Origin: Anaerolineaceae bacterium
GTDB taxonomy: Bacteria; Chloroflexota; Anaerolineae; Anaerolineales; Anaerolineaceae
NCBI GenBank assembly: GCA_016927865.1
Contig: JAFGLU010000008.1
Coordinates: forward strand, 1 to 64,000
Reading direction: 5' to 3'
Length of the DNA: 64,000 nucleotides
Below are positions 19,156 through 61,761 of the stretch, in pieces (positions within the stretch are counted from its first letter, which is position 1; every line of letters begins with the position of its first letter). A model generated the notes under the pieces. It was not told the origin of the DNA, did not search any database, and was given only the letters and a program-made list of their open reading frames with translations. A program made the translations under genes and the position numbers.

Positions 19156-19254
19156 GCCCCCGGTGAAAGTTATATGATTGATTGTAGCCAAATCCAAGGG
19201 GCGGGGCAAGAAAAACGAATTGATTGTTGTGTGAGGATAGCGAAGTTCTACTTA

Positions 19255-19323
19255 ACGATGGTGCTGCCTGAATCAGCGCAGCCCGCCTTCGGCGGCCTTC
19301 GCTGATTCAGGCAGCACCATCGT
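19255..19323. repeat. Long perfect inverted repeat at the left edge of the mobile element
   Basis: 24-bp arms (19255-19278 and 19300-19323) are fully complementary. The 21-nt spacer has an inner hairpin CCGCC-TTC-GGCGG. It lies between the NACHT gene and the first element gene, and the reading frame of that gene stays open into it. Could be a cruciform, an element end or a regulatory hairpin. Confidence 0.85.
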
Positions 19324-19333
19324 TCCCAGGGTT

Positions 19334-48406: not shown

Positions 48407-48677
48407 TACTTTGACAATGTCACATTAAAAAATCGCAACTTTCAGGCTCGGTGGCCCCCACCCTACCCTCCCCCGGCTACCAAGATTCTCAATCACTGAG
48501 GTATTCTGCCGGGGGAGGGAAAGAATTCTGCAAAAGTGAGGGGCTTTCAGCCCCTCACTTTTGCGAAATCTTCTCCCCCTCCCCGCTCACAAGCTGAATT
48601 TACCGAAACGGATTTCTAGCGGGGAGGGCAGGGGTGGGGCCGAAAGCTTCAACGTGAAATGTGACATTGTCAAAGTA
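48407..48677. mobile_element. MITE-like element with 20-bp perfect terminal inverted repeats
   Basis: Ends TACTTTGACAATGTCACATT and its exact complement. Inside are C-rich/G-rich subterminal inverted repeats (ACCCTACCCTCCCCC ... GGGGAGGGCAGGGGTGGGG) and a central hairpin. No ORF, so it would be mobilised in trans by a transposase encoded elsewhere. No obvious target-site duplication was identified. Confidence 0.7.
48530..48564. repeat. Perfect 16-bp hairpin with a TTC/GAA triloop
   Basis: Arms GCAAAAGTGAGGGGCT / AGCCCCTCACTTTTGC around TTC, i.e. GAA on the minus strand. Sits in the centre of the MITE-like element. Confidence 0.85.
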
Positions 48678-53338: not shown

Positions 53339-53603
53339 TTTATTGGCACAGAAGAGAGTCCCTCTCAACAGGAGCAACTCTTATGCCAGCACGGCGATCA
53401 ATTGCTGATAAAGTTGTTTAGAATACTTTCTTGAAGAAGGTCCCAGTATTTCCGGTTCTCTGGGAGTTGCCACGGCAATTCCCAATGACCCGCATTTCCT
53501 ACTGTCATGATTATACTTTAAGTTGTTTGATGCGTCAGTTGATTTCACCTCTGGCAGCGTCACTATTGACAAAGTGTAACTGCTCGCAGAAAGCTGAAAA
53601 AGA
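53339..53603. other. Intergenic region upstream of the GGDEF gene
   Basis: About 265 bp with no credible gene. Probably holds the GGDEF promoter; adjoining it are the first GAA-tip palindrome and the terminator of the S1-protein gene. Confidence 0.35.
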
Positions 53604-53658
53604 CCAGAATTTGAGGGTAGTGTGGGTGCGAAGCACCCACACTACCCTCAAATTCTGG
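53604..53658. repeat. GAA-tip palindrome 1
   Basis: Perfect 26-bp arms around GAA. Outer part CCAGAATTTGAG, inner part GGGTGC-GAA-GCACCC, variable middle GGTAGTGT. Intergenic, no T-run. Confidence 0.95.
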
Positions 53659-53696
53659 AGCTTTTCTCAACCTCGGTGAGTAGATACGACAGAGCA

Positions 53697-53729
53697 AAAA
53701 AACACCCTCCGCAAAGGAGGGTGTTTTGA
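53697..53729 (-). terminator. Terminator of the S1-domain protein gene
   Basis: 10-bp stem AACACCCTCC / GGAGGGTGTT with loop GCAAA; on the minus strand it ends in at least seven T. Also flanked by T on the plus strand, so it may work both ways. Confidence 0.9.
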
Positions 53730-53772
53730 CTTGCAACTCGCCTGGGGAGAGCCGGAGTCAGTCAGGAGAGAT

Positions 53773-54852
53773 CTACGAGACAGACTGGACCTTGTTTTCC
53801 AGCGTCCTGCTCAAGATGTCTTCCTGTTCCTGAGTAGTGGCCTTGTTCTTGCGGGCTTTGTCCTCAGACTTTCGGGCTTTGGCACGTTCCATGGCCTCGC
53901 GCATGGCGATTTCCATGGCGGTCGGCTCGGCTTCGACCTGCGGCTCGTTGATGTTTGCCAACAACTCGTCCACATTGCCGCCCATATCATCACCACGTCC
54001 GCGGCGGTTGGTGACCTTCTTCTTGCGGGCGGGTTTTTCCTTGCGCTCGGCGGAGGGGTAGAAGTTGCGCGGTTCTTCAACTTCTTCCTTCACTGGTTCA
54101 GGCTGCAGGGCTTTGATGCTCAGCTTGATCTGGCGCTTCTTGCGATTCACGTCGATCACCTGGGCTTCAATCTCGTCGCCTTCATTGACCACATCGGATG
54201 GCTGGCGCACGTAGCCGTGGGCCATTTCGCTAATGTGAATGAGGCCGGGACGTTCCGCGCCAATTTCTACAAACGCGCCGAATTTTTCCAGCCGGACCAC
54301 TTTGCCCTTGACGGACATGCCGGTTTTGATGTCGCGCCACTCGAGGTCGAGTGGTTTGAACATGGTCAATTCAACGCGGTCATCTTTGACGCGCTTAACC
54401 CACACATCGATCTCTTGACCGATTTGCAGCACATCTTCCACGCGCTTGATCGCCTCAGGCGATGTAGACAGCAGCTGCGAAATGTGGATGAGGGCGGGTT
54501 TTTCCTGCCCAACGTCGACCAAGGCGCCCGCCAGCCCGATCTTTACGACCTTGCCGGTGAAATGCGTCTTCGTCTTTACCCCACCCTCAGAGCTGTCATC
54601 CTGCGCAGCTTCGACAGCGTCCTCCTGCGAGGTTTCGACCTCTACAGTTTCAGTACTATCTGCCTGGACGGCTTCGATAGCTACCTCCTGTGGGGTTTCG
54701 ACCTGCGCAGTTTCGACGCTATCTGCCTGCACAGCTTCGACAGTATCCTCCTGCGGGGTTTCGACCTGCGCAGTTTCGGCGCTATCTGCCTGCACGGCCT
54801 CGACAGCATCCTCCTGCGGGGTTTCGATTGTGTTGTTCAAATCTGACTCCAT
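53773..54852 (-). CDS. S1 RNA-binding protein with acidic repeat N-terminus
   Basis: Start at MESDLNNTIE, with GGGAGAAG 9 nt upstream; an earlier ATG is less likely. 359 aa. Residues ~10-89 are four acidic 21-residue repeats (ETPQEDAVEAVQADS...). Two S1 domains follow (FTGKVVKIGLAGALVDVGQ near 97-168; KGKVVRLEKFGAFVEIGAE near 178-250), then a basic/charged tail (KPARKKKVTNRRGRGDD). Resembles a short ribosomal-protein-S1-like factor; probably binds mRNA or ribosomes. Single gene with its own terminator. Confidence 0.85.
   Translation of the reverse strand: MESDLNNTIETPQEDAVEAVQADSAETAQVETPQEDTVEAVQADSVETAQVETPQEVAIEAVQADSTETVEVETSQEDAVEAAQDDSSEGGVKTKTHFTGKVVKIGLAGALVDVGQEKPALIHISQLLSTSPEAIKRVEDVLQIGQEIDVWVKRVKDDRVELTMFKPLDLEWRDIKTGMSVKGKVVRLEKFGAFVEIGAERPGLIHISEMAHGYVRQPSDVVNEGDEIEAQVIDVNRKKRQIKLSIKALQPEPVKEEVEEPRNFYPSAERKEKPARKKKVTNRRGRGDDMGGNVDELLANINEPQVEAEPTAMEIAMREAMERAKARKSEDKARKNKATTQEQEDILSRTLENKVQSVS
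54586..54825. repeat. 63-bp coding tandem repeat in the S1 protein gene
   Basis: Nearly four units, each encoding 21 acidic residues; the first two units are the most alike. Likely to vary in copy number between strains. Confidence 0.85.
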
Positions 54853-54998
54853 TACGACTTCTCCCATATAAGTGTCACGAAAGGTGATTATACCGCTGCC
54901 GGGGAGTACTGTCAATCATGCATCCTTCATGATCTTAAGCACCTTTCGGGGGGGATATTCTGGTAAAATCGTAATACCCCAAAGGGTTGGGATTAATT

Positions 54999-55053
54999 CC
55001 CGAATTTTAGGTGATTGCGGGTGCGAAGCACCCGCAATCACCTAAAATTCGGG
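54999..55053. repeat. GAA-tip palindrome 2
   Basis: Perfect 26-bp arms around GAA. Outer part CCCGAATTTTAG, inner GGGTGC-GAA-GCACCC, variable middle GTGATTGC. Lies in the divergent gap before the Rel-type gene. Confidence 0.95.
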
Positions 55054-55108
55054 CTTCTTCCACTATCAGATGTGTTTGTTTCATTGAAAAGGCTGTGGGA
55101 TCAAAACG

Positions 55109-56965
55109 ATGGTTAGAATCGAACCCGTGCATGAACTCCGGCCCAGAATGGTCGGTGACTATAATCAGGAAAATTTTGTTCCCCGCACCCCGGCAATTGC
55201 CGAGGCCTACCGCCTTGGGCAAGAACTCCATGCCGGGCAAAAACGCCTGAGTGGGGAGCCGTACTTTGAGACGCATTGCGGTTGGGTGGCCGGCTTTTTG
55301 GATGAGCTGGTTGGCAACGAAGCCTGGACGATAGCGGCCCTGCTCCACGATGCCGTTGAGGACAGCGGGGCCGGGCTGGATCGCATTCGCGCGATCTTCG
55401 CCGGGCCGTTGGGTGAGGAAGTGGCCTATATTGTGGACGGGGTCACCAAGTTGAGCAATCCTCGTGACGGGCGCTCGCGTGAGATGGAAACCCTGCGCAA
55501 AATTGCCATGTTCCGCGACCCTGGCGTTTTTCTGGTCAAGCTGGCCGACAAAACCCACAATCTACTCACCTTGCAGCACATGTCCCCGGCCAAGCGCGTA
55601 CAAAAGTCCACCGAGGCCATCCGAGCTTATGGTAAACTGGCGGGCATCCTCAACTGCTACCGCTGGCGCTGCTGGATCGAAGATATTTCCTTCCCCTTTG
55701 CTGATCCCGAAAGTTTTGCTTTTGTCAAACAGCGCGTCGATGCCGATCTGCGTTTGCAATTATCTTTCATCAACCCGATGATGGAGCAGATGGCGAACCT
55801 GATGGAAAAGGCCGGCGTGGATGGCAGCGTCAGCATTTTTGCCAATGGTTATTGGCAGGTGTGGCAAAAGCTGCGCCGCATGGCCCGCTCTCGAAAATCC
55901 TCCCTGAGCAACTTCTCCGCGGTGAATGATATGATCAGCTTCCGCCTGACCACGGCCAGCGAGGACAAAAACCAGTGTTACGCCCTGCTAGGTGTCGTCA
56001 ACAGCTTTTTTGGGCCTTACCTGGACAACGATCGCTTCGACGACTTCATCGCCTATCCGCAGAATGGTTACCGCGCCATTCAAGTCACCGCCTGGCTGCC
56101 GGACTACGGAGCCATCGAGGTGGCCATTACCACACCTGAAATGGAAGGCGAAAATATGTGGGGTGTGGTTTATGCCATTAAGAACGGTCAGGAGACCAGC
56201 CAATACCGCCCGGTAGAAATCCTCACCCCTAGCGGCGGGGCACGCTTCTTGCGCGACGGTTCTTCAGTACTAGACGCGGTTGCGTCCATTCAGCAGGAAT
56301 TCTTGTTGGATAAGATCAGTGCCGTCAAGGTGAATGGCGCTTTGGCGCGCCTTTCCGATCGCGTTCAACCGGGCGACGTGGTGGAGGTGGTGACCAGCGG
56401 CAAACGCTTGACCCCCAGCGAAGAGTGGCTGGCCTATTGCAACGAGTCCACTGCCCGGCTGCTGCGCGCGGTGCTGGCGACTGTTGGGCTGCGCAAATCA
56501 GCCGATATGGGGCGGCGCATGATTCACCCGGTGTTGAGTGAGCGCGGCATTCTGGCGCTAGAGGATGTGCGCGCTCTGGAAAACGACCGCCTGGATAATC
56601 TGCTGGAGCGCTTGGGCTGTGCCAGCCTGGAAGACCTTTATGCGGCGCTGGGCGGAGGAACTATTCGCCTGAGTGATGTGGCTGCCACCCTGGACGAAAC
56701 CGGTATTTCGCGCGCGGTTCTGCAATGGACGACTATTTTGATGTACGCCGAGCCGGAAAGCAACAAGCCCGGCACGCTCTCTCGTCTGGCGGGGATCATC
56801 TCGCGCCAGGGCGGCAACATCCTGCGCTCGGTCAACGATACTTTGCCAGACGGCAGCTTTAACCTGCGCCTGGTCGTTTCTCAGTTGGACGAAGCGCATT
56901 TGAGCAAGTTGCGGCGGGCTTTCAAAGCCTCGGGCATTCCTTTCCGTTCGCTTGAAATCGTTTGA
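55109..56965 (+). CDS. Rel/SpoT-type ppGpp enzyme with eroded synthetase domain
   Basis: 618 aa, shorter than typical Rel (~720+). The HD hydrolase site looks intact: H41, R46 and H56 region, LLHDAVED (80-85), LADKTHN (145-151). The synthetase region is aberrant: FDDFIAYPQNGYRAIQVT at 310-326 has Gln where Rel has the conserved His, and AIEVAITTPE at 335-344 replaces EVQIRT. TGS (~385-450, DAVASIQQEFLLDKISAVKV) and C-terminal ACT domain (RLAGIISRQGGNILRSVNDT) follow. Probably a hydrolase-biased enzyme. The next gene starts 7 nt after the stop. Confidence 0.82.
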   Translation: MVRIEPVHELRPRMVGDYNQENFVPRTPAIAEAYRLGQELHAGQKRLSGEPYFETHCGWVAGFLDELVGNEAWTIAALLHDAVEDSGAGLDRIRAIFAGPLGEEVAYIVDGVTKLSNPRDGRSREMETLRKIAMFRDPGVFLVKLADKTHNLLTLQHMSPAKRVQKSTEAIRAYGKLAGILNCYRWRCWIEDISFPFADPESFAFVKQRVDADLRLQLSFINPMMEQMANLMEKAGVDGSVSIFANGYWQVWQKLRRMARSRKSSLSNFSAVNDMISFRLTTASEDKNQCYALLGVVNSFFGPYLDNDRFDDFIAYPQNGYRAIQVTAWLPDYGAIEVAITTPEMEGENMWGVVYAIKNGQETSQYRPVEILTPSGGARFLRDGSSVLDAVASIQQEFLLDKISAVKVNGALARLSDRVQPGDVVEVVTSGKRLTPSEEWLAYCNESTARLLRAVLATVGLRKSADMGRRMIHPVLSERGILALEDVRALENDRLDNLLERLGCASLEDLYAALGGGTIRLSDVAATLDETGISRAVLQWTTILMYAEPESNKPGTLSRLAGIISRQGGNILRSVNDTLPDGSFNLRLVVSQLDEAHLSKLRRAFKASGIPFRSLEIV

Positions 56966-56972
56966 GGCTCGC

Positions 56973-57464
56973 ATGCAGTTGGGAATCATTTCAGACACGC
57001 ACAACAACCTCACCACTCTGGAGTTCGCCCTGGCGTTTCTGCGCTTGCGTGGTGTAGACACCATCGTTCACTGTGGCGACATGACCACGCCCGAAACGGC
57101 TTCGGCGCTGGGCGGTTTTCAGGTGATTCATGTGCTGGGCAATGGTGATTACCTCTCGGGCGAAATTCGCCAGGCGCTGCTGTATCAGAACCCCAACAAC
57201 TTTAGCGGCGAGGTGTTCACAGGCTCGGTGGGAGGGGTGAAAATTGCCGCGACTCACGGGCATGTGCCCAAGAAGGTGCAGGAGTTGGTTGAATCGGGTG
57301 AGTATGCGTTTGTGTTTTGCGGACACACTCACCGCCATAAGGACGAGCAGGTGGGGTGGACGCGGGTGATTAACCCCGGCGCGTTGGGCGGGCTGCGCTC
57401 TGAGAATCATTCCTTTTACGTACTGGATTTGGAGACCGGCGAAGGCTTGTTCTTGCCTGCTTAA
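56973..57464 (+). CDS. YfcE/MJ0936-family metallophosphoesterase
   Basis: Start at MQLGIISDTHNN; the frame is open 7 codons earlier. 163 aa. Ligand motifs SDTHNN, VHCGDM, LGNGDY, ATHGHVPK and CGHTHRHKDE complete the two-metal site. Small phosphodiesterases of this family hydrolyse model and cyclic substrates; the natural one is unknown. Downstream of the Rel-type gene and tail-to-tail with a second member of the family. Confidence 0.9.
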   Translation: MQLGIISDTHNNLTTLEFALAFLRLRGVDTIVHCGDMTTPETASALGGFQVIHVLGNGDYLSGEIRQALLYQNPNNFSGEVFTGSVGGVKIAATHGHVPKKVQELVESGEYAFVFCGHTHRHKDEQVGWTRVINPGALGGLRSENHSFYVLDLETGEGLFLPA

Positions 57465-58072
57465 GGGCGAGCTTTCCAGGCGCCTTTGACCACTTTAGCC
57501 CCTTCGAGGGGGAGAATTTCGGCTTCCACGCGCCCGCCGGGGTAAAAGCGCAGCAGGCCGTAAGTTGGTCGGGCATCTTCAGGGCGGAAACTGAAGCTGG
57601 CGGAGCCGGGGTTGAAATAGAGCACGCCATTTTCCCAGCGGTTTTCTGCGCTGTGGGTGTGCCCGTAGACAATGACTCGCGCACCGGGACAAGAGCGTTC
57701 CAGCAGCCGGCGGTAGCGCTCAAAGCGGTAGCCGAGGAGGACATATTCGAATTTGTCCCACCAGTAGGTGAACCAGGTGCCGTGCCCGTGAGCCAGCCCC
57801 ACTGTCACCCCTGCGACTTCGAATTGCACGGTTTTGGGCAACTCCAGACGGTAGAGCCAGTCGCGGTTGCCCTGCACCGCGGTGACCGGCGCCACCTGGG
57901 CCAGTTCATCCAGCACCCAGCGGGTGGAGATATCACCGGCGTGCAGGATACGCTCCACGCCTGCCGCGCGCAGCCTGGGAATCAAGGCCGGGTGCAGGTT
58001 GCTCACCCGGTCGGGGATGTGCGTGTCGGTGACTACGCCGAGCGTGGCGATGGGAGCGGCAGACGGACCCAT
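57461..58072 (-). CDS. YfcE/MJ0936-family metallophosphoesterase, second member
   Basis: 203 aa. Motifs VTDTHIPD, LHAGDIS, QGNRDWL, AHGHGTW and YGHTHSAEN match the same metal site as the convergent neighbour, which it overlaps by 4 nt. It has an insert (YWWDKFEYVLLGYRFERYRR) absent from the other. Ends 3 nt after the HAD-family gene stop, so the two minus-strand genes form an operon. Confidence 0.9.
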   Translation of the reverse strand: MGPSAAPIATLGVVTDTHIPDRVSNLHPALIPRLRAAGVERILHAGDISTRWVLDELAQVAPVTAVQGNRDWLYRLELPKTVQFEVAGVTVGLAHGHGTWFTYWWDKFEYVLLGYRFERYRRLLERSCPGARVIVYGHTHSAENRWENGVLYFNPGSASFSFRPEDARPTYGLLRFYPGGRVEAEILPLEGAKVVKGAWKARP

Positions 58073-58075
58073 CTG

Positions 58076-58699
58076 TTAATCCAACAGGTCTTGCAATTCT
58101 GCCAGGGCCTGCTCGCGGTTCTTGAAATGAACGGCTTGCCAGCCTGCCCGCTTGGCGCCTTCTATGTTGTGCGGAAAATCATCCACGAAGACAATTTGCT
58201 CGCCAGGCAGCCTGAGCAGAGCGGCCGTGTGGGCGAAGATGCGAGCATCGGGCTTGCGCACTCCGGCTGCCGCGGAACTGACCACTACATCAAAACTGGA
58301 TTCAACGTAGTCGCGATCCAGGCCGTAGCGCTCGGAAAACATGGGCAGCACATTTTTGGGCCAGGCGTTGCTGAGAAGGCCGGTTTTGTAATGCGGGCGG
58401 AAGGAGCGCAAGCAGTCGAACAGTTCACGGTCCAGTCGGTCGCCGGCCCAAAATTGGGTCTCAAATTCCAGGATTTCGACGGGCGACAGGTTGAGCGTCT
58501 GGCGGACGTGTTCCCACACGTCGACGGGCTCGGCACGACCCTCTTCAGCGGCCACGCTGATGGGGCTGCCCCACACCAGTTGGTCGATTCCGGCATAATC
58601 GAGGCCGAAGCGGGCGCCCAGAGCGGCGCGTAGGGTGCGATCTTCGGTGCGCAGGAGGACGCCGCCGATGTCAAAGATGATTGCTTGAATGGATTTCAT
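58076..58699 (-). CDS. HAD-superfamily phosphatase (subfamily IA)
   Basis: 207 aa. Motif I is IIFDIGGVLL (nucleophile D10, with Gly in place of the usual Thr/Val), motif II TGLLSNAWPK, Lys in VRKPDARIF, motif IV IVFVDDFPHN. The second Asp of motif I is Gly (DIGG), as in epoxide-hydrolase-like/YihX-type HADs, which are phosphatases of sugar phosphates. Substrate unknown. Confidence 0.88.
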   Translation of the reverse strand: MKSIQAIIFDIGGVLLRTEDRTLRAALGARFGLDYAGIDQLVWGSPISVAAEEGRAEPVDVWEHVRQTLNLSPVEILEFETQFWAGDRLDRELFDCLRSFRPHYKTGLLSNAWPKNVLPMFSERYGLDRDYVESSFDVVVSSAAAGVRKPDARIFAHTAALLRLPGEQIVFVDDFPHNIEGAKRAGWQAVHFKNREQALAELQDLLD

Positions 58700-58758
58700 G
58701 GGGGTAAGTATATCAGAAGCAAAAGCCCGTGAGAGAAATGTGGCGGGATTGAAGAAAC

Positions 58759-58857
58759 GCGGGACTAAAGTCCCTGCTCAGATCATGGAAACCCTGGCGG
58801 GTTGAGGAGGATGAGTCCCGTAGGGACTTTGAGGTTCTGAGGAGGGGTTTCAACCCC
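58759..58857. repeat. Covarying mini-hairpin repeat, copy 2 (extended)
   Basis: Hairpins GGGACT-AA-AGTCCC, AACCC-TGGC-GGGTT, AGTCCC-GTA-GGGACT and GGGGTT-TC-AACCCC in a row. The first two, with linker TGCTCAGATCATGGA and tail GAGGAGG, match the plan of 39697-39749 with changed but complementary stems. Confidence 0.75.
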
Positions 58858-58888
58858 GACGTAATGAACCTACGTAGGATTGGAGCGG

Positions 58889-58894
58889 TATAAT
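58889..58894 (+). promoter_or_regulatory. -10 box (TATAAT) of a second apparently leaderless gene
   Basis: TATAAT ends 7 nt before the ATG of the AIR-synthase-like gene, the same spacing as at 45654. No ribosome site in between. Confidence 0.6.
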
Positions 58895-58901
58895 CCCATC
58901 T

Positions 58902-59915
58902 ATGACAACTGCTTTCCCGCTGGGCAAACTGCCCCCTGCTTTTCTGGCCAACCTGCTGGCACAGGCCCCGCAGCTTGACCCGCGCATTCTGCTCGGCCCC
59001 GGCGCTGGGCTGGACTGCGCCGTGATCGACCTGGGCGAGCGCCTGCTGGTGCTTAAATCCGACCCGATCACCTTTGCCATCGACCAGATCGGCTGGTACG
59101 CCGTGCAGATCAATGCCAATGACATTGCCACCAGCGGGGCAGAACCGCGTTGGATGATGGTGACGCTTCTCCTGCCGGAAGGCAAGACCACCCCCGGCCT
59201 GGTCGAAGATATCTTCGATCAGGTTTACCGCGCGGCGGCGGAGTTGGGCATCTCGGTCATCGGTGGGCATTCTGAGGTGACATACGGCCTGGACCGCCCT
59301 ATCCTCAGTGCGACGCTGATCGGCGAGACAACCCGCGAGCGGCTGGTCACCCCGCGCGGAGCGCAGCCTGGAGACCGTTTGCTGCTGACCAAGGGCGTGC
59401 CGGTGGAGGGCACGGCCATCCTGGCACGCGAGTTTCCGGCGCGACTGGAGCAGGCGCTGACCGCCGCCGAGTTGGAAGAGGCCCGCAGCTATCTGACCCA
59501 TCCCGGGATTTCCGTGACCCGCGATGCGGCTCTGGCCCAGGCGGCGGGCAAGGTGACGGCCATGCACGACCCCACCGAGGGCGGGTTGGCGGGCGCGCTG
59601 TGGGAGCTGGCGGACGCCTCGGGACGGCGGCTGGTGATGGACCCGGCGCGCGTGCCCGTGCCCGAACTGGCGGCCAAAATTTGCCGCTGCCTGGGCCTGG
59701 ACCCGCTGGCGACGATCGCCTCTGGAGCCCTGCTGCTGGCGGCTGCGGCTCAGCACGCTGCTGCCATTCAAGCGGCGCTCGAGTCATCTGGCATTCCATG
59801 CGCCGATATTGGGCGAGTAGAAGCCGGAGAAGCGGGGGTGTGGAATGAAAAAACGGGCAAGCCCTTAGATCGGCCTGCCCGTGATGAAATCGCGCGCCTG
59901 TTTGAGATGTCTTAG
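58902..59915 (+). CDS. AIR-synthase-related (HypE-like) protein
   Basis: 337 aa. PurM-like ATP-binding pattern: LGPGAGLDCAVIDLG, SDPITFAIDQIGWYAVQINA, NDIATSGAEPRWMMV, GGHSEVTYGLDRP, AMHDPTEGGLAGALWE. HypE makes the cyanide ligand precursor of NiFe hydrogenases, but its C-terminal Cys motif (PRIC) is absent and no hyp genes are near, so this is a stand-alone relative. ATP-dependent dehydration or phosphotransfer is likely. Confidence 0.85.
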   Translation: MTTAFPLGKLPPAFLANLLAQAPQLDPRILLGPGAGLDCAVIDLGERLLVLKSDPITFAIDQIGWYAVQINANDIATSGAEPRWMMVTLLLPEGKTTPGLVEDIFDQVYRAAAELGISVIGGHSEVTYGLDRPILSATLIGETTRERLVTPRGAQPGDRLLLTKGVPVEGTAILAREFPARLEQALTAAELEEARSYLTHPGISVTRDAALAQAAGKVTAMHDPTEGGLAGALWELADASGRRLVMDPARVPVPELAAKICRCLGLDPLATIASGALLLAAAAQHAAAIQAALESSGIPCADIGRVEAGEAGVWNEKTGKPLDRPARDEIARLFEMS

Positions 59916-59968
59916 AATCCACCTCAAACTCGCTTCCCCCTCCGAATTTTCTGGTCGATTCTTAGAAT

Positions 59969-60364
59969 TTAGTCGTCGTTCCGGCGGCGGCTTTTGCGGT
60001 CGGCGCCAAAGATCATGCTCAACACGAAGCTGACCACGCTGACGATGAGCGCGCCGAGGAAGGCGGGCAAGAAGCCGTCTACGGTGAAGCCAACGCCGAA
60101 GTTGCTGCCAATGATGCCCGCCAGGTAGAACATCAACGTGTTCACCAGCAGGGTGCCCAGACCCAAGGTGAGGATGATGACCGGGCAGCCCACCACCATG
60201 GCCACGGGGCGGATGAGGGCGTTGACCAGGCCGAAAATTACGGCCAGCCAAAGAAGGGACAGCCAACTACCGTCCTGGACGTTAAGTCCGTTGCCGCCCA
60301 GCAGGAAAAAGGCCGCGTACAAGGCAGCCATATTGATTAAAATGCGCAGAATCAGTTTGCTCAT
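59969..60364 (-). CDS. Phage-holin-4/YvlD-like membrane protein
   Basis: Start at MSKLILRILINMAALYAAFF, with CAAGGAG upstream. 131 aa with four TM helices (ILINMAALYAAFFLLGG, LLWLAVIFGLVNALIRP, VIILTLGLGTLLVNTLMFYL, FLGALIVSVVSFVLSMIFG) and a basic tail. Pattern of the phage_holin_4_2/YvlD family of small inner-membrane proteins; function unclear, not phage-linked here. Confidence 0.8.
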   Translation of the reverse strand: MSKLILRILINMAALYAAFFLLGGNGLNVQDGSWLSLLWLAVIFGLVNALIRPVAMVVGCPVIILTLGLGTLLVNTLMFYLAGIIGSNFGVGFTVDGFLPAFLGALIVSVVSFVLSMIFGADRKSRRRNDD

Positions 60365-60478
60365 GGTTTCTCCTTGACAACTTGTTGGTGGGCCGTTGGT
60401 CAACAGCGACCCATCCGTGATTTTCTTACTACACTATACGACAAATCATACCAAAAGTTGCGCAGAGTGTAAAAGAAA

Positions 60479-60531
60479 TCTTAATTTGAGATACGCGGGG
60501 TGCGAAGCACCCCGCGTATCTCAAATTAAGA
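60479..60531. repeat. GAA-tip palindrome 3
   Basis: Perfect 25-bp arms around GAA. Outer part TCTTAATTTGAG, inner GGGTGC-GAA-GCACCC, variable middle ATACGCG. Between the holin-like gene start and the GNAT gene stop. Confidence 0.95.
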
Positions 60532-60564
60532 GGTTTCCCCCACCCGCTAAGACGTTCGGCGATC

Positions 60565-61548
60565 TTAAAAAACGTTCTCGGGCATGGGATGTTCCATCCA
60601 TACCAGGGTGTTGAGGACGTGGAAACCAGCCTCGCGGAAGTTGTCTTCGGCGCGCCCGGCGGGAAAGTTGATGCTGGTGGGGCGGTGGCGGTGATACAGC
60701 GAATGGCGCACCTGGGGCAGCAGGTACTTGAGAGCGTAGCGTTCGTACTGGTCTGAGGTAGCGATCCACACGTGGTCGGCATAGGAGGCGGAAGGCTCCC
60801 AGGAGGCAAAGCCCAGCGGCTGACCGGTTTGCGGCTGGCGCAGCACCCAATGGTTTTGCTCGTCGCCGTTCAGCCAACGCAACGCGCTGTACCACCAGTG
60901 CGGGTTGAAGTGGCGCAGGTCAAAGGACAGGTTCCAGGAGACCTCTGGAGGGTATAGCTCTTGCAACCAACGCTCTTGCCAGGCCCAATCGCCCCGGCGG
61001 CGCGGCGAGATGAGCGGGTGGGTGTCCACCATCATGCCCGAATCGCCGTTGCCCACCCAGGTGGTGCGCCGGGAGCGTTCTACGAAGCCGGTTTCCAGGT
61101 ACAACTGGTAGGCGGCGGGGTTGTCGCTGCGCACTTGCAGCCAGGCGGCAGTGGCTCCGTGCGAACGGATATGTTCCAGGGCGCGCAGGGTGAGTTGGCG
61201 GGCAATCCCGCGGCGTCGGAAATCGGGATGCACAGCCACGTTCGCAATTAAATAGATCCATTTCCCGCCGCGGTAGATGGGGATGAGACTGATGTTGCCG
61301 ATGAGGCGGCGGTCCTCTTCCCACACGTATCCATGCAACGGGGTCGAGATACGCTCAGAGGGCCCGGTCATCCAGCGTAAGATCGATGGGTCGGCAGCGG
61401 ATTTGCGGATGTGGCGCAAATAGTCGCGCCCGTCCGGGTCCAGCGTGCCGGCAAAGCACGATTCGATCAGGTCGGCGACTGGGAACAGGTCCTTGAGTAC
61501 GTTCAGGGGGCGTATGTGAGCTGCTTGGACGGGGACATCGTATCTCAC
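60565..61548 (-). CDS. GNAT acetyltransferase (tandem-type)
   Basis: GTG start (VRYDVPVQAAHIRPL) chosen because TACAAT ends 6 nt before it, as for two other leaderless genes here; the frame is open 24 codons further. 327 aa. The first GNAT half carries NVAVHPDFRRRGIARQLTLR and VRSDNPAAYQLYLETGF. The second half (NHWVLRQPQTGQPLGFASWE ... AGRAEDNFREAGFHVLNTLV) looks like a degenerate GNAT copy. Substrate unknown. Confidence 0.8.
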   Translation of the reverse strand: MRYDVPVQAAHIRPLNVLKDLFPVADLIESCFAGTLDPDGRDYLRHIRKSAADPSILRWMTGPSERISTPLHGYVWEEDRRLIGNISLIPIYRGGKWIYLIANVAVHPDFRRRGIARQLTLRALEHIRSHGATAAWLQVRSDNPAAYQLYLETGFVERSRRTTWVGNGDSGMMVDTHPLISPRRRGDWAWQERWLQELYPPEVSWNLSFDLRHFNPHWWYSALRWLNGDEQNHWVLRQPQTGQPLGFASWEPSASYADHVWIATSDQYERYALKYLLPQVRHSLYHRHRPTSINFPAGRAEDNFREAGFHVLNTLVWMEHPMPENVF

Positions 61549-61624
61549 AGTTGAATTGTACCCGAGTTGTTTTTTCTGAGAGTAGATTTTAAGACAGGTA
61601 CTTTTCTTGTAACTAATCAAGAGG

Positions 61625-61681
61625 CCTGAATTTAAGGTGTGTATGGGGTGCGAAGCACCCCATACACACCTTAAATTCAGG
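61625..61681. repeat. GAA-tip palindrome 4
   Basis: Perfect 27-bp arms around GAA. Outer part CCTGAATTTAAG, inner GGGTGC-GAA-GCACCC, variable middle GTGTGTATG. In the divergent gap upstream of clpC. Confidence 0.95.
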
Positions 61682-61761
61682 GACTTCTCCCACCCTCTGA
61701 GCAGTCACCTTTTCTTATAACCTTCTTATAGAATATTGGTTCTTTTCTGGGTGGCTGATGC

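What the first reader, a model, noticed from the sequence alone, without database searches (positions are those of the whole stretch)
53604..61681. Four long perfect palindromes with a fixed GCGAAGC tip and a different, perfectly paired mid-stem in each
At 53604-53658, 54999-55053, 60479-60531 and 61625-61681 there are 25-27-bp perfect palindromes, all intergenic. All share an outer AATTTNAG, an inner GGGTGC-GAA-GCACCC, and 7-9 bp in between that differ in every copy yet stay fully complementary. Ordinary mutation would break pairing; here both arms change together. Terminators need a T-run, which is absent. d(GCGAAGC) is known to be an exceptionally stable DNA mini-hairpin, so the signal may act as single-stranded DNA or a cruciform: a REP/RAYT-like transposition substrate, a replication or recombination site, or a tag copied from one arm to the other by hairpin-primed repair.
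Basis: partly seen in the sequence, partly recalled or inferred. Interest (0 to 1): 0.78.

Follow-up and report, generated by a model that had tools for sequence, protein, structure and literature searches.

The report
Mobile DNA with self-repairing, flipping hairpin
The four palindromes are the centres of a small jumping-DNA element present in over 100 copies in this bacterium, and the two halves of each hairpin appear to be kept matching by DNA copying from one half to the other, a mutation process usually seen only as rare events.

Summary
The palindromes are not stand-alone signals: they are the centres of a ~112-bp MITE with IS66-type ends (GTAACTRCTCAG…CTGAGYAGTTAC) and 8-bp target duplications. 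The tip occurs 105 times in this genome, against 0 for the reversed control. The window copy at 61609-61708 has a perfect CTTTTCTT duplication. A relative carries a full IS with the same ends and an IS66 transposase.

The arms really do change together, after insertion. In the same elements, target-duplication pairs mismatch at 8.9% but arm pairs at 1.6% (0.8% outside the tip). Arms remain almost perfect in copies whose ends have decayed to noise.

The 3-nt loop, and sometimes a larger asymmetric centre, occurs in both orientations inside a fixed asymmetric frame: 17 GAA to 24 TTC here. It also does so in a relative's nearly identical copies and in an unrelated cyanobacterial MITE. Some elements have lost the palindrome by deletion.

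Arm homogenisation plus spacer inversion is the known signature of replication template switching. I therefore favour a MITE hairpin maintained by strand-switch correction over selection for an RNA, a terminator or a REP/RAYT element. No bias relative to genes was seen. The link to IS66 and the strand-switch mechanism are inferred.

The parts
53576..53687 (+). MITE copy 1 (112 bp): left end GTAACTGCTCGC, right end GTGAGTAGATAC
   Evidence: read against the consensus; flanking 8-mers gacaaagt (53568-53575) and gacagagc (53688-53695) match 6 of 8
53604..53658 (+). palindromic core of copy 1, 26-bp arms, GAA loop
54971..55081 (+). MITE copy 2, ends decayed (approximate limits): left GTAATACCCCAAAGGGTTGGGATTAATTCCC, right CTTCTTCCACTATCAGATG
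   Evidence: read by alignment to the frame; no target duplication recognisable
54999..55053 (+). palindromic core of copy 2, 26-bp arms, GAA loop
60453..60558 (+). MITE copy 3, ends strongly decayed (approximate limits), arms still perfect
   Evidence: read by alignment to the frame; no target duplication recognisable
60479..60531 (+). palindromic core of copy 3, 25-bp arms, GAA loop
61601..61608 (+). left 8-bp target duplication CTTTTCTT of copy 4
61609..61708 (+). MITE copy 4 (100 bp, left side shortened): GTAACTAATCAA...CTGAGCAGTCAC
   Evidence: listed as L019 +2610
61625..61681 (+). palindromic core of copy 4, 27-bp arms, GAA loop
61709..61716 (+). right 8-bp target duplication CTTTTCTT of copy 4

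Best explanation
The palindromes are the hairpin cores of a non-autonomous transposable element (MITE) with IS66-type terminal inverted repeats, mobilised in trans and making 8-bp target duplications. After insertion the core folds back as single-stranded DNA during replication. The nascent strand switches template within or across the hairpin and copies one arm onto the other. A mutation in one arm is thereby either erased or copied to its partner, so stems drift yet stay perfectly paired. When the switch is between strands of the fork, the loop is inverted. Occasional slippage deletes the core. Shown: element structure, copy number, target duplications, post-insertion maintenance of pairing, paired transitions and transversions, loop inversion, core-less derivatives. 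Inferred: mobilisation by an IS66 transposase, and template switching as the molecular process.
For: MITE: 68 TIR-bounded stretches in the own genome, 25 with exact 8-bp flanking repeats and none with exact 9- or 10-bp ones, most near 112 bp. A relative holds a 1.57-kb IS with the same ends and a 490-aa transposase, Pfam DDE_Tnp_IS66 3.8e-41. Post-insertion maintenance: in 48 elements target-duplication pairs mismatch 34/384 (8.9%) and arm pairs 18/1104 (1.6%), 7/864 outside the tip; Fisher p 1e-9, and still p 2e-5 for a comparison in which the duplication count is limited to elements matching 7 or 8 of 8. In 27 copies whose ends fall near the random score, 17 have no arm mismatch at pairs 7-24 and most of the rest have 1-2. 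Not frozen: arms diverge at 0.49 (0.38-0.61) of the rate of the adjacent frame; 19 of 54 paired changes are transversions, against 44 of 193 in the frame, and transversions cannot pass through a G-U step. Loop inversion: 24 TTC and 17 GAA in a fixed asymmetric frame; in relative G056 several arm classes occur with both orientations, including elements otherwise identical (L343/L361/L374 v. L360; L353 v. L372) and a 20-nt asymmetric centre (L341/L366/L380 v. L377); in Leptolyngbya FACHB-8, 8 TTC and 4 GAA with unrelated TIRs. Core-less elements of 50-67 bp. Template switching is reported to homogenise inverted-repeat arms and invert spacers (PMC8604942; PMC8794818).
Against: No second strain was available, so no single correction event was seen at an orthologous site. 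No IS66 transposase was found in the 84.5%-complete own assembly; two contigs end in the same 87 bp starting with the TIR, suggesting an unassembled IS. Arms evolve at about half the frame rate, not the equal rate a pure correction model predicts, so some constraint on the stem may also act. The tip is more conserved than the rest. Gene conversion between MITE copies could contribute to loop inversion. In-vitro or assembly flips of loops cannot be wholly excluded for short-read assemblies, though matching target duplications show that elements were joined correctly.
Confidence: 0.72

Rival explanations
1. Selection keeps the stem paired because the hairpin works as a structure (RNA processing signal, terminator, or protein-bound DNA hairpin); paired changes are ordinary compensatory mutations.
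For: Arms drift at only about half the frame rate and the tip less; a GNA-type triloop recurs (GCGAAGC here, GCGCAGC and GCGTAGC in G056); the outer stem CCCGAA..GGTG recurs across genomes and TIR types (read).
Against: Pairing persists in decayed, presumably dead copies. No preference for convergent, tandem or divergent gaps (38 tandem, 22 convergent, 20 divergent v. background 105, 54, 55) or for strand (20 v. 18). Paired transversions are at least as common as in the neutral frame. Unpaired cells show A-C mismatches as often as G-T. Selection does not explain loop inversion.
Confidence: 0.17
2. Each new copy is born with perfect arms by fold-back copying during transposition, and copies are simply too young to have decayed.
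For: Young G056 copies are nearly perfect, with little target-duplication decay (5/288; arms 5/660).
Against: In the own genome the target duplications of the same elements have decayed 5 to 10 times more than the arms, and arms survive where the ends are unrecognisable.
Confidence: 0.05
3. Gene conversion between dispersed MITE copies, which can align in either orientation because the core is palindromic, keeps arms alike and flips loops.
For: Many near-identical copies exist; chimeric cores occur, e.g. L072, whose two arms come from different families.
Against: Stem changes found in a single copy are paired (e.g. L096, L237, L095, L023), which a donor with the common stem cannot supply; conversion tracts covering one arm would leave mismatches.
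Confidence: 0.06
4. REP/RAYT-type element moved as single-stranded DNA by a Y1 transposase.
For: The genome has three Y1_Tnp genes; the core is an extragenic palindrome.
Against: 8-bp target duplications and IS66-type TIRs; no such palindrome flanks the Y1 genes.
Confidence: 0.02

Closest known systems
Bacterial MITEs (non-autonomous IS derivatives; reviewed in PMC10969869, PMC2229807)
   Same: Short, non-coding, TIR-bounded, target-duplicating, >100 dispersed intergenic copies, ends shared with an IS
   Different: Carries a long perfect core palindrome that stays paired and flips its loop; I found no description of this in the papers searched
IS66-family insertion sequences
   Same: Ends GTAACTRCTCAG are the ends of an IS66-type IS in relative G069; 8-bp target duplication as recalled for IS66
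   Different: No transposase; the own assembly lacks PF03050
Quasipalindrome correction / template-switch mutation (PMC8604942, PMC8794818)
   Same: Arm homogenisation and spacer inversion, even GAA to TTC
   Different: Known as scattered single events in yeast genes and rRNA stems (loop-inverting compensatory events 'extremely rare' in PMC8794818); here the footprint is in most copies of whole element families
REP/REPIN elements with RAYT transposases (PMC2817692, PMC3116915, PMC3733652)
   Same: Extragenic palindromes in high copy number
   Different: No RAYT neighbour; TIRs and target duplications present
Perfect inverted repeats in Nematomorpha mitochondrial genes (PMC6649704)
   Same: Long perfect inverted repeats in a natural genome
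   Different: Coding, mitochondrial, not mobile; only the abstract was seen

Membership tests
MITE | terminal inverted repeats | tested here: met
   GTAACTRCTCAG / CTGAGYAGTTAC, 108 exact single ends in the own genome, control 0; 68 two-ended stretches
MITE | target-site duplication of fixed length | tested here: met
   exact 8 bp in 25 elements, exact 9 or 10 bp in none
MITE | short, non-coding, multi-copy | tested here: met
   mostly 108-112 bp; >100 copies
MITE | cognate autonomous element with same ends in the same genome | tested here: inconclusive
   none found with PF03050; contig ends C63/C64 share 87 bp beginning with the TIR; complete IS found in relative G069
IS66 family (as mobilising system) | IS66-type transposase between the same TIRs | tested here: met
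   in relative G069, L306: PF03050 3.8e-41 and zf-IS66 9.7e-9; TIR on both sides
IS66 family (as mobilising system) | shown to move this MITE | not testable with these tools
   needs a transposition assay
Template-switch (quasipalindrome) correction | arms homogenised beyond neutral expectation | tested here: met
   1.6% v. 8.9% mismatch
Template-switch (quasipalindrome) correction | spacer inversion between perfect arms | tested here: met
Template-switch (quasipalindrome) correction | dependence on replication and polymerase/exonuclease genes | not testable with these tools
   needs genetics
REP/RAYT | RAYT (Y1) gene flanked by the palindrome | tested here: not met
REP/RAYT | no target duplication, no TIR | tested here: not met
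Intrinsic terminator | position and strand bias to gene 3' ends | tested here: not met
   convergent 22, divergent 20, tandem 38, like the background gaps; strand 20 v. 18 (crude ORF calls)
Rfam families | match at gathering score | tested here: not met
   only one tRNA in the window

The most novel reading that the evidence does not exclude
The hairpin is a transferable module that many unrelated MITE families carry because it is a self-correcting, flip-prone DNA structure. Fold-back copying that starts at the tip and runs outward could even give an element a matching second terminal repeat, so the module may help build new MITEs with new ends. Consistent with this: closely similar stems in two TIR frames of this genome and in AGGACTTACGCA-ended elements of relatives, and similarly tipped flipping hairpins in a cyanobacterium with different ends.
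Probability: 0.15. Interest if true: 0.85.

Novelty: new variant of a known kind. Interest (0 to 1): 0.57.

Why it matters
How long hairpin stems stay perfectly paired while their sequence changes is an old question. Template switching has been proposed, but PMC8794818 calls its own evidence for maintenance circumstantial and loop-inverting events extremely rare. These families supply hundreds of replicate hairpins, each with a built-in clock (its target duplication) and a direction marker (its asymmetric ends), so correction and inversion rates can be measured against point mutation in natural bacterial genomes. They also warn that covariation in stems is not by itself proof of selection for RNA structure: here arms covary in decayed copies with no sign of function.

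Tried and rejected
Terminator or RNA element: no context or strand bias, no Rfam match. RAYT: Y1 genes present but not associated. Own-genome IS66 transposase: none found; following the 87-bp contig ends into relatives gave only further contig ends or short end matches. The exact 19-nt tip TGGGGTGCGAAGCACCCCA was found only in this genome among 396 of the class, so the sequence is species-specific while the architecture is not. Looking for elements with two left or two right halves, as outward copying would predict, gave no convincing case. In one search I used a wrong boundary; one search replaces it.
Full report
WHAT IS THERE. The four palindromes are exactly as described: arms of 26, 26, 25 and 27 bp, GAA loop, folding as single-stranded DNA into one perfect hairpin each. 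The window is G000:C23:1-64000 of a 3.97-Mb, 147-contig, 84.5%-complete assembly; the tip GGTGCGAAGCACC occurs 105 times in it, and the same pattern read backwards 0 times. Ninety-eight copies were collected and lined up.

THE PALINDROME IS THE CORE OF A MITE. Outside the arms most copies carry recognisable ends: GTAACTRCTCAG on the left and CTGAGYAGTTAC on the right. The single end occurs 108 times, control 0. Taking both ends with up to two mismatches gives 68 stretches, most near 112 bp. Twenty-five have exact 8-bp direct repeats at their borders, none exact 9- or 10-bp ones, and many others match 7 of 8. In the window the copy at 61609-61708 has a perfect duplication CTTTTCTT. The copy at 53576-53687 has gacaaagt/gacagagc (6 of 8, by eye). 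The other two copies have ends so decayed that no duplication is visible, yet their arms are perfect. A second, smaller set of copies has the same core in another frame (AGGACCTATCC...GGATAGGTCCT; 11 copies).

WHICH TRANSPOSASE. Relative G069 has a 1.57-kb element bounded by GTAACTACTCAG on both sides (L306). Its 490-aa protein matches DDE_Tnp_IS66 (3.8e-41) and zf-IS66. An 8-bp duplication also fits IS66 (from my own knowledge). The own assembly has no PF03050 match, but two contigs end in the same 87 bp that starts with the TIR, as expected of a collapsed multi-copy IS. Mobilisation by an IS66-type enzyme is therefore likely but inferred.

THE ARMS ARE KEPT PAIRED AFTER INSERTION. The two copies of a target duplication are identical on the day of insertion and presumably neutral later, so they clock the element's age. 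In 48 elements with at least 5 of 8 matching bases, duplication pairs mismatch at 34/384 (8.9%), arm pairs at 18/1104 (1.6%), and arm pairs outside the tip at 7/864 (0.8%). For 20 elements found by their ends and lacking the strict tip, hence not selected for it, the figures are 15/160 against 5/360 outside the tip. Fisher tests give p about 1e-9 for the main comparison; taking only the mismatches of elements with 7 or 8 matching bases gives p about 2e-5. In the 27 copies with the least recognisable ends (score below 18; random 95th percentile 14) 17 have no arm mismatch at pairs 7-24. Apart from two chimeric or rearranged cores (L072, L090) the rest have one or two, mostly at the outermost pair. 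These 27 include copies of the second frame.

THE ARMS NEVERTHELESS CHANGE. Among 31 aligned elements, arm pairs differ at 0.49 (95% interval 0.38-0.61) and mid-stem pairs at 0.58 (0.46-0.74) of the rate of the adjacent frame. Of 54 paired deviations from the majority base 19 are transversions, against 44 of 193 in the frame. Transversions cannot go through a wobble pair, so slow compensatory evolution by G-U steps is a poor model. The ten unpaired cells include five A-C or C-A and four G-T or T-G, so the G-T kind is not favoured, as an RNA constraint would favour it. Pure correction predicts a paired rate equal to the frame rate; the shortfall suggests some additional constraint or lower mutability of the stem.

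THE LOOP FLIPS. The two ends of the element differ internally (CCAGAGGTGGAAGAGGCCC on one side, AGGGTGGGGAAAGTTCCC on the other), so the frame has a direction. Oriented by it, 43 elements show 24 TTC, 17 GAA and 2 other loops. In relative G056, which has 115 copies with other tips (GCGCAGC, GCGTAGC, GTGCGCAC) and little-decayed duplications, 40 were read in full. Several classes identical in frame and arms occur with both loop orientations, e.g. L343/L361/L374 against L360 and L353 against L372, and a 20-nt asymmetric centre occurs both ways round (L341/L366/L380 against L377). In the cyanobacterium Leptolyngbya sp. FACHB-8 a MITE-like element with unrelated ends (CTAGTASGCTG...) and the same tip shows 8 TTC and 4 GAA. 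Target duplications are intact in most G056 elements read, which argues that the elements were assembled correctly; it does not by itself exclude loop errors.

THE CORE CAN BE LOST. Eight TIR-bounded stretches of 50-78 bp have no core or only a remnant. L251 reads CCCAAATTTGGG where a full element has CCCAAATTTGAGG...CCTCAAATTTGGG, i.e. a deletion between the short direct repeats AAATTTG, as slippage across a hairpin would produce.

MECHANISM. Arm homogenisation together with spacer inversion is the reported footprint of DNA polymerase template switching between inverted repeats (PMC8604942, which also lists GAA-to-TTC flips in yeast genes). Template switching has been proposed to maintain RNA stems (PMC8794818). 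That paper regards loop inversion accompanying a compensatory change as the strongest support and found it extremely rare; here flips are common. I infer that the hairpin, with its stable GNA-type loop, folds on single-stranded DNA at the fork and is repeatedly corrected and, when strands are exchanged, flipped. Gene conversion between copies may add to this, but paired changes found in single copies (L096, L237, L095, L023) need copying within the element.

FUNCTION OF THE HAIRPIN. There is no sign that it serves the host: the spacing and strand of neighbouring genes are as in the background (38 tandem, 22 convergent, 20 divergent, 5 inside crude ORFs; background 105 tandem, 54 convergent, 55 divergent; strand 20 v. 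18). Whether it serves the MITE is open. The recurrence of CCCGAA..GGTG outer stems and GNA-type loops under different TIRs and in different genomes suggests that it is either an old shared module or favoured by something not identified here.

LIMITS. No second strain of the species is held. The own assembly is fragmented at these elements, so identical copies are under-represented. Gene calls were crude ORFs. Collection scans were truncated. Statements on IS66 duplication length, GNA loop stability and palindrome deletion rest on general knowledge.

Noticed in passing
window 48508-48586: A second repeated palindrome family, also with a GAA/TTC loop (AAAAGTGAGGGGCT-GAA-AGCCCCTCACTTTT within GCCGGGGGAGG...CCTCCCCGC): its core GAGGGGCTGAAAGCCCCTC occurs 23 times in the own genome, control 0.
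   Followed up: partly
L001, L029, L037, L040, L062, L069, L081, L094, L095 (own genome): The same hairpin core sits in a different TIR frame (AGGACCTATCC...GGATAGGTCCT), so core and ends seem to have been recombined between MITE families.
   Followed up: partly
L215, L216, L224, L226, L229 (relatives G056, G043): Hairpins with the same tip inside elements ended by AGGACTTACGCA; L215 seems to have an 8-bp duplication ATTATTGA.
   Followed up: no
L310, L311, L312 (relatives G031, G041): Other MITEs with the same GTAACTRCTCAG ends but longer, different interiors; one end sequence appears to serve several unrelated MITE bodies.
   Followed up: no
G000 contigs C42, C92, C101, C112, C63, C64 (starts): Contigs break at these elements or at an 87-bp IS-like end, so the assembly loses identical copies and probably the autonomous IS.
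   Followed up: partly
L072, 3006 (own genome C97): Chimeric core: left arm from the second frame, right arm from another element, joined at the tip, consistent with recombination or deletion between two elements through the shared hairpin tip.
   Followed up: no
window 19254-19324: A 34-bp, 94% inverted repeat with a 3-nt spacer, not related to this family.
   Followed up: no
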